Source: Myxococcales bacterium (lineage in GTDB: Bacteria > Myxococcota_A > Polyangia > Fen-1088). From it: a stretch of 32,171 bases of DNA. The stretch is from contig JANXXE010000078.1 in the NCBI GenBank assembly GCA_025350815.1, positions 1-32,171 on the forward strand, read 5' to 3'. Positions 9,320-10,594 of the stretch are shown here, in pieces. Below the pieces are notes generated by a model. That model made no database searches. It was given only the letters and a program-made list of their open reading frames with translations, and was not told the DNA's origin. The first letter of the stretch is position 1; each line of letters begins with the position of its first letter. A program made the translations under genes and the position numbers.

Positions 9320-9553
9320 TCAGCGCGCGCCGCGGGTCGGACCCACTTTGCCCACGACATCGGCTGCCGTCGCAGCCACGGTGGCCCGTTTGAGCCACTG
9401 ATCGAGCCGCCCCTGGTCCCCGCACGACAGAATGCGGCGGCGCACCGCCGCGCCCACCACAACTCCGCGGGCCTCAAGGACGCGGAGAATGGCATGCGCC
9501 TCGCCCTCAAGCCGCCCCCGAGCCTCCCCTTCGGCCCTGCCCTCGGCCTAGCC
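9320..9553 (-). pseudogene. Severed C-terminal part of the Rpn-like gene
   Basis: Directly after the TAG at 9554-9556 the same frame continues as Gly, a second TAG (9548-9550), then about 75 codons to a TGA at 9320-9322. The segment starts with a Glu/Gly/Ala/Arg repeat linker (AEGRAEGEARG) and continues with AILRVLEARGVVV and VRRRILSCGDQGRLDQWL, which reads as a real protein tail. Repeat-rich linkers and such tails are usual at the C-terminus of these Rpn-like proteins. Restoring both stops to GAG (Glu) would give one reading frame of about 306 residues. Confidence 0.7.
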
Positions 9554-10240
9554 CTAGGCGACGAAATTCCGGCCGAAGGCACTCTTGTACGCGTAGTTCT
9601 TCAGGTCCATGGCTTCGAATTCCTTTCGCGCGGCATCCGACAGTGCCCCCAAAATCAGATCGTAGTACAGCATCCGCAACTCGTCACGCAGCTTCTCCGT
9701 TGCTCGCACCGCCGCCGTCGCCACCAGCGCCGCCCGCCGAGCGGGCAAGCGATTCCCGTGCGCCACGACCGAAAGAACGGCCAACTCTGGGTGAGGCATG
9801 CCGCTGTTGACCACGTCGATGACGGGCACAAGGTCGGGGCCGATCACGATTGGCGCGAAGGTCCATCCAGGTCCGCCCGGTACGGTCGCGCCTGCCCAGC
9901 GCGCGACTCTTTCATTCGGGGCGTACACCAACACGCACGTCGGGCAGCCCAGACGGGCCCGCAGGCTCGTCGCGTAATGCGGCCACGACAGGCGCTTCTT
10001 CGCGTCGACGCCCAACTGCACTTCCACGACCACGCCCAGAACTGGTGACTGGTCCCCCAGTACCACAACAAGATCCGCTCGGTACTCGGGCGGTGTCAGA
10101 TCTGCGAACGCAGCGGATTCAATTCGCGCCTGCGTGAAGGACGGCAGAGGCACGGACAGCGTATTGCCCAATAATTGTGCGGCCAGCATCGGACGCTGCC
10201 GGAACAGTTCGACAATTGCCTCATGGAAGACAGACGGCAT
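9554..10240 (-). CDS. Rpn-like PD-(D/E)XK-fold protein, truncated by amber codon
   Basis: The 228-residue product starts at the ATG at 10240 (MPSVFHEAIVELFRQRP). It has the pattern of recombination-promoting nuclease-like (Rpn/YhgA-type) PD-(D/E)XK proteins: YRADLVVVL, then VVVEVQLGVDAKKR, where D and E-x-Q would be the acidic and third positions of the nuclease core. CPTCVLVYAPNERVARWA and ELAVLSVVAHG are blocks I associate with a family abundant in myxobacteria. The frame is closed by TAG at the point where family members enter a repeat linker, and the missing tail follows in the same frame (9320-9553). The nuclease fold is intact, so a shortened protein could still be active. Function in the host is unknown. 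Confidence 0.78.
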   Translation of the reverse strand: MPSVFHEAIVELFRQRPMLAAQLLGNTLSVPLPSFTQARIESAAFADLTPPEYRADLVVVLGDQSPVLGVVVEVQLGVDAKKRLSWPHYATSLRARLGCPTCVLVYAPNERVARWAGATVPGGPGWTFAPIVIGPDLVPVIDVVNSGMPHPELAVLSVVAHGNRLPARRAALVATAAVRATEKLRDELRMLYYDLILGALSDAARKEFEAMDLKNYAYKSAFGRNFVA

Positions 10241-10594
10241 AGGCGCGGCCCGTCTTCGGCCGCCGCAGCCACGGGTTGCGCGACAGCGGCACGACAAGTC
10301 TCTGCAATCCGCCTGTATGTGGCCCACGACCTGGATTCGCAGTCTCCGCACTGCCGCCAGCCTCGGCGTGTCGCCCTTTGCGGCTGTGGGACCAGCGTCG
10401 GTCAGATGACCGATGCGGCCGGCACGCGCGGCAACGACGCTACACCCCCGGCGGACACCTGAAGGTTGCGACCACTACCAACGATGCGCCCGCCGCGGAC
10501 TCGCCGGGACCGGACTTGCCGGCGAACAGCCCTTAGAAAGAACCGTCGCCAGGATAAAGACGCAGCCCCGGCAGTTGTCGCATAATCGCGGCCC
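10241..10594. other. Intergenic region between divergent genes
   Basis: About 350 bp between the Rpn-like gene (minus) and the peptidase gene (plus). I see no convincing coding frame or RNA gene. It holds a 7-bp inverted repeat (TCGCCGG at 10501-10507, CCGGCGA at 10519-10525) and the CATAAT box just before the peptidase start. Confidence 0.5.
10581..10586 (+). promoter_or_regulatory. -10 box (CATAAT) before the M2 peptidase gene
   Basis: CATAAT matches the -10 consensus at 5 of 6 positions and lies 8 nt before the ATG at 10595, with no ribosome-binding site between. A leaderless transcript is likely. No good -35 box is seen. Confidence 0.5.

What the first reader, a model, noticed from the sequence alone, without database searches (positions are those of the whole stretch)
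9320..10240. Rpn-like gene severed by two adjacent in-frame amber codons in a Glu-repeat linker
At the end of the nuclease-like core the frame reads ...Phe-Val-Ala-TAG-Gly-TAG-Ala-Glu-Gly and continues for about 75 sensible codons to a TGA. Both TAGs sit where the repeat linker would have GAG (Glu), so two G-to-T changes account for the break. The tail is still open and protein-like, so the event is recent or the tail remains in use. Genome-wide amber recoding is unlikely, since TAG ends several other genes here (5678, 13935, 17679, 31905).
Basis: partly seen in the sequence, partly recalled or inferred. Interest (0 to 1): 0.6.

Follow-up and report, generated by a model that had tools for sequence, protein, structure and literature searches.

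The report
Broken Rpn-like toxin-antitoxin gene
A myxobacterial gene for a DNA-cutting, probably self-restraining phage-defence protein has been cut short by two stop codons in its linker; the break is an ordinary inactivation, but the intact relatives show that this little-described gene family very probably makes a second, small protein from inside the same gene.

Summary
On the minus strand (10240 to 9320), a 228-codon PD-(D/E)XK nuclease-like core is followed by TAG-Gly-TAG (9554-9556, 9548-9550) and 75 more open codons to TGA. Of 108 distinct Polyangia homologues, 104 read straight through the linker into the same C-terminal domain and none stops at the Phe-Val-Ala position, so the window gene is a broken copy. 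The genome has an intact release factor 1 and no CUA tRNA, so amber recoding is out. Glu is not the consensus at either site (first: Lys/Glu/Gln; second: mostly Arg). No usable start codon directly follows the stops, so "the tail remains in use" is not supported. The rest of the frame is preserved, which fits recent inactivation or an assembly error; reads would decide.

The larger result concerns the family. A conserved internal ATG, 18 codons before the first TAG, carries a strong Shine-Dalgarno kept by synonymous codon choice in Polyangia and, independently, in genes mostly from Actinomycetota. This matches the RpnL/RpnS gene-within-a-gene toxin-antitoxin design, in a family whose scanned members match no Pfam or NCBIfam model. 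In the window both stops lie downstream of that start, so both products are cut.

The parts
9557..10240 (-). 228-codon PD-(D/E)XK nuclease-like core of the Rpn-like gene, start ATG at 10238-10240; E7, D56, E73, Q75 and K82 kept
9554..9556 (-). first in-frame amber codon; homologues have Lys, Glu or Gln (less often Arg) here
9548..9550 (-). second in-frame amber codon; homologues mostly Arg here, also Leu, Lys, Glu
9323..9547 (-). 75-codon open tail: four-residue-repeat helix and C-terminal helical domain (RpnS-like), with no suitable start of its own
9320..9322 (-). TGA, original end of the reading frame
9608..9610 (-). ATG of Met211, the family's conserved internal start position; here with a weak, distant Shine-Dalgarno
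9621..9626 (-). AAAGGA, candidate internal ribosome-binding site about 10 nt before the internal ATG; the TGGAGG of most homologues is absent

Best explanation
The locus is a recently inactivated copy of a divergent Rpn-like gene. In intact relatives the gene most likely encodes two products: a full-length protein (L) with a PD-(D/E)XK nuclease core, a four-residue-repeat helix and a C-terminal helical oligomerisation domain, and a small protein (S) made of the repeats and C-terminal domain, translated from a conserved internal ATG with its own strong Shine-Dalgarno. By analogy with E. coli, L is a toxic anti-phage nuclease and S its antitoxin. In the window, two amber codons just after the internal start cut both products: the core keeps its catalytic residues but loses the oligomerisation domain, and S is reduced to an 18-residue peptide. 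Shown here: the break, intact homologues, the internal-start signature in the family, intact release factor 1, no amber tRNA. Inferred: the toxin/antitoxin roles, that the break inactivates, and that it is recent.
For: Break and frame. Of 108 distinct Polyangia homologue genes, 104 are 281-337 aa and continue through the linker; the 4 short ones do not stop at the window's position. No recoding: prfA intact at 512.9 bits, over cut-off; 37 tRNA genes, none with anticodon CUA. No other decay: core 49/53 and tail 4/4 conserved positions kept, mid-range leave-one-out profile score. Fold: AlphaFold model pLDDT 86; several of the best PDB matches, individually weak, are PD-(D/E)XK enzymes (NucS, MspJI, Cap4, PaqCI, Hjc). 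Profile comparison aligns E7/D56/E73/Q75 with RpnA D11/D63/E82/Q84, positions whose mutation abolished or altered RpnA phenotypes (PMC5350276). Internal start: Met at that column in 85 of 104 homologues; GGAGG or GAGGA within 18 nt upstream in 68 of 85 against 4.5% elsewhere in the genes; the Leu codon three before is CTG/TTG in 75 of 81 against 49% expected (nonredundant 46 of 51, p = 1e-10). Replicated in 49 genes from outside Polyangia, mostly Actinomycetota: Met 43 of 49, Leu CTG/TTG 34 of 36 (p = 3e-6), and where Leu is replaced by Trp or Met the TGG(G)AGG is kept. The internal Shine-Dalgarno is stronger than the main one (median -9.3 vs -2.9 kcal/mol). E. coli rpnA, rpnB and rpnE show the same geometry (PMC10327210).
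Against: No raw reads, so the stops could be an assembly error. No close orthologue (best 52% identity), so neither recency nor relaxed selection can be measured. The family matches no Rpn Pfam model and the profile comparison with E. coli Rpn is only 37% probable. A truncated core may keep some activity: RpnD lacking its last 45 residues was less active but not dead (PMC5350276). The window's own internal Shine-Dalgarno is among the weakest 5%, so its internal start is doubtful.
Confidence: 0.75

Rival explanations
1. The two amber codons are a sequencing or assembly error, or a minority strain variant, in a fragmented draft genome; the gene is intact in the organism.
For: The genome is in 226 contigs, no reads are available, both changes sit within 9 bases, and nothing else in 306 codons is damaged. 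The tetranucleotide CTAG is strongly depleted in the window (12 against about 102 expected), yet two occur here within 10 bases.
Against: Two substitution errors in one consensus are uncommon; no homopolymer or indel is involved.
Confidence: 0.15
2. Functional truncation: the 228-residue core is the working product, freed from the C-terminal domain, and is retained by selection.
For: All catalytic residues are kept; a shortened RpnD kept partial activity in E. coli (PMC5350276).
Against: No intact homologue ends there; the removed domain is the oligomerisation and antitoxin-binding part in E. coli Rpn (PMC10327210); the tail has not yet decayed, as it should have if the truncation were old.
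Confidence: 0.06
3. The tail is still made, by stop-codon readthrough or from a start inside the tail.
For: The tail is open and family-like. Two broken homologues, L155 and L249, keep a separately translatable tail because their breaks lie just before the internal ATG.
Against: In the window the internal ATG is upstream of the stops. The first standard start in the tail frame is GTG at 9460, after most of the first domain helix. Two tandem stops make readthrough very inefficient (general knowledge), and there is no amber tRNA.
Confidence: 0.03
4. Amber is recoded as a sense codon in this genome.
For: None beyond the open frame.
Against: Intact RF1, no CUA tRNA among 37, and TAG terminates other window genes including the ABC-F and argininosuccinate synthase-like genes.
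Confidence: 0.01

Closest known systems
E. coli Rpn proteins (RpnA-E, COG5464, PF04754) with intragenic RpnS antitoxins (PMC10327210)
   Same: PD-(D/E)XK core with D and ExQ in register; four-residue repeats of varying number; helical C-terminal domain; internal ATG with strong Shine-Dalgarno shortly before the repeats
   Different: No PF04754 match, profile link only 37% probable, about 21% identity over the aligned 97 columns; toxicity, antitoxin action and phage defence untested here; the window copy is broken
PDDEXK_2 (PF12784) nuclease family, often annotated as Rpn-family or transposase
   Same: PD-(D/E)XK type with ExQ motif, several copies in some Polyangia
   Different: No profile relation detected (hhalign probability 0.6%); not found in this genome
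DUF4351 (PF14261) C-terminal domains, the annotation of some free-standing RpnS (PMC10327210)
   Same: Repeat helix plus small helical domain at the C-terminus
   Different: The window tail does not match DUF4351; only one more distant locus, L012, does

Membership tests
Rpn (YhgA-like, PF04754 / COG5464) | match to the family model | tested here: not met
   no PF04754 match in any of 20 members
Rpn (YhgA-like, PF04754 / COG5464) | PD-(D/E)XK catalytic residues (RpnA D11, D63, E82, Q84) | tested here: met
   E7/D56/E73/Q75 align in register; D56, E73, Q75 at least 99% conserved in the family
Rpn (YhgA-like, PF04754 / COG5464) | PD-(D/E)XK fold | tested here: inconclusive
   confident model; PDB matches weak (best E 0.14, probability 0.93) but several are PD-(D/E)XK enzymes
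RpnL/RpnS intragenic toxin-antitoxin | four-residue repeats of varying number before a C-terminal helical domain | tested here: met
RpnL/RpnS intragenic toxin-antitoxin | internal translation start with ribosome-binding site, 8-20 residues before the repeats | tested here: met
   sequence signature at family level; translation itself not shown; the window copy has the ATG but only a weak Shine-Dalgarno
RpnL/RpnS intragenic toxin-antitoxin | L toxic, S blocks it | not testable with these tools
   needs expression
RpnL/RpnS intragenic toxin-antitoxin | anti-phage activity | not testable with these tools
   needs infection assays; no PADLOC match
PDDEXK_2 (PF12784) | match to the family model | tested here: not met
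Amber-recoded gene | loss of RF1 or a CUA tRNA | tested here: not met

The most novel reading that the evidence does not exclude
An Rpn-like nuclease family without a Pfam or NCBIfam match, spread over Myxococcota, Actinomycetota, Acidobacteriota and Gammaproteobacteria, is a gene-within-a-gene toxin-antitoxin system whose internal ribosome-binding site is stronger than the main one; the window holds a copy cut below the internal start, so that both partners were lost together.
Probability: 0.6. Interest if true: 0.55.

Novelty: new member of a known kind. Interest (0 to 1): 0.4.

Why it matters
The break itself is ordinary gene decay. The intact relatives matter more: codon-level conservation of an internal ribosome-binding site is sequence evidence that intragenic antitoxins extend to a large family, common in myxobacteria and actinomycetes, for which no Pfam or NCBIfam model was found. 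It also changes how breaks in such genes should be read: a stop before the internal start removes the toxin but leaves the small protein; a stop after it removes both.

Tried and rejected
Amber recoding and amber suppression. Natural short form. Frameshifts in the repeat linker of relatives: the apparent splits were only alignment breaks at variable repeat number. A second functional copy in the genome: only one place matches, plus a 51-base fragment of the 5' end on contig C213. Synteny with the nagA-like locus of G002: not conserved. Upstream hairpin as a repeated element: the third genomic match lies inside a coding gene and is taken as chance. A mutational route, that the second stop was copied from the first through the short inverted repeat GCCTAG-GG-CTAGGC, is possible but largely follows from CTAG being its own complement, so it is not claimed. 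Phage and plasmid collections: no phage match, two actinomycete replicons. A named scan with the window core alone found nothing; an alignment of closer relatives succeeded.

Full report
Observation. The minus-strand frame from 10240 down to 9320 encodes 228 codons of a conserved core, then TAG-GGC-TAG (9554-9556 and 9548-9550), then 75 codons of tail and a TGA at 9320-9322. The other TAG gene ends it lists are real, two of them in genes with firm Pfam matches (ABC-F-type ATPase, argininosuccinate synthase).

Where it is. The window is one contig of a 4.5-Mb draft genome in 226 contigs, 97.7% complete. The gene lies 40 nt upstream of an amidohydrolase gene (nagA-like by sequence) on the same strand.

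Family. The core matches no Pfam, NCBIfam or PADLOC model, and 20 aligned members show no Rpn model match in Pfam. Yet 103 of 318 Polyangia genomes hold homologues at E <= 1e-10, many in several copies, and a named scan found relatives in Actinomycetota (Nocardia, Sphaerisporangium, Actinomadura, Amycolatopsis), in an Acidobacteriota draft genome (Thermoanaerobaculum) and in Gammaproteobacteria. The model of the read-through protein is confident (pLDDT 86); several of its closest, individually weak, PDB matches are PD-(D/E)XK enzymes. A profile comparison with E. coli RpnA/B/C/E puts E7, D56, E73 and Q75 on RpnA D11, D63, E82 and Q84, residues shown to matter for RpnA activity (PMC5350276). 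It looks built like an Rpn; formal membership of PF04754 was tested and not met.

Is it broken? Of 108 distinct Polyangia homologue genes that begin near the start of the family and have their stop inside the fetched DNA, 104 are 281-337 aa and run through the linker into a C-terminal domain. The four short ones are three frameshifts (L155, L156, L163), in which the tail survives in another frame, and one fragment, L018. None ends at the window's position. The residue at the first stop is Lys 29, Glu 23, Gln 21, Arg 13 of 98 aligned; at the second mostly Arg (26), then Leu 11, Lys 7, Val 5, His 5, Glu 3, with 36 gaps because repeat number varies.

Recoding and suppression. Release factor 1 is present and intact. 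The 37 tRNA genes found include no CUA anticodon.

Age. Apart from the two stops there is no lesion: no indel, 49 of 53 strongly conserved core positions and 4 of 4 tail positions kept, and leave-one-out profile scores in the middle of the family (33rd and 36th of 53). A nonsense change is about 3% of random substitutions in this gene, and two falling within two codons has probability about 0.016. This fits a recent break, one local event, or an artefact; without a close orthologue (best 52% identity) it cannot be dated.

Internal start. Met211, 18 codons before the first TAG, is conserved (85 of 104 homologues) and always ATG. In 68 of 85 genes GGAGG or GAGGA lies within 18 nt upstream, against 4.5% at other codons. 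The codons that form it appear chosen for it: the Leu three codons before is CTG or TTG in 75 of 81 (49% expected; nonredundant set 46 of 51, p = 1e-10), and the Glu is GAG in 87 of 91. A separate set of 49 genes from outside Polyangia repeats this (Leu CTG/TTG 34 of 36, p = 3e-6), and Trp (TGG) or Met (ATG) in place of Leu keep the TGG(G)AGG. The internal site is stronger than that of the main start (median -9.3 vs -2.9 kcal/mol). E. coli rpnA, rpnB and rpnE have the same layout, and there the small proteins of RpnA and RpnB were shown to act as antitoxins (PMC10327210). I take this as good evidence for a translated small protein in the family; its antitoxin role is inferred.

What the break does. 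In the window the internal ATG is kept (9608-9610) but its Shine-Dalgarno is weak and distant (AAAGGA, about 10 nt; weakest 5% of the family). Its nearest tree neighbour, L114 (weak support), is intact and also lacks GGAGG, so this weakness need not be a result of the break. Both stops lie after the ATG, so both products are cut. The tail frame has no standard start until GTG at 9460, past most of the first domain helix. Five other broken homologues (L155, L156, L163, L228, L249) all break before the internal ATG, leaving the small-protein frame open; with only five cases this is suggestive, not significant.

Verdict. A confirmed, probably recent inactivation of an Rpn-like gene, ordinary in itself, with assembly error the main remaining doubt. 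The family-level internal-start signature is the part worth following.

Noticed in passing
G000:C213:39241-39291 (L002 1501-1551): A 51-base, 84% identical copy of the gene's first ten codons and the bases just upstream lies at the end of a peptidase-like gene elsewhere in the same genome; probably the remnant of a second copy.
   Followed up: partly
window 10241-10265: A short stem-loop (loop GAAGAC) sits directly before the start codon; the C213 remnant has the same loop with different but paired stem bases. It folds better than shuffles only in the remnant (z -4.5 vs -0.9).
   Followed up: partly
L249 around 2118: The Actinomadura logoneensis homologue has an in-frame TAG just before the internal ATG, where relatives have a GAG Glu codon; the small-protein frame stays open.
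   Followed up: partly
L155 around 1032: The homologue in G286 is frameshifted exactly at the internal start, leaving the core and a separate tail frame starting ATGATG behind GGAGG.
   Followed up: partly
G002:C3:158931-164153 (L006, L016, L024, L032): Tandem array of several Rpn-like genes with differing repeat numbers, in the only other genome of the window's family found to carry them; the other 16 of that family sampled have none.
   Followed up: no
window, whole: CTAG is strongly depleted (12 found, about 102 expected from base composition); three of the 12 are at TAG gene ends (5675, 13932, 17676) and two are the stops reported here.
   Followed up: no
window 9320-10240: Third-position GC of the gene (0.75-0.78) is a little below the other window genes measured (0.80-0.86), as might be seen in a gene acquired from elsewhere.
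   Followed up: no
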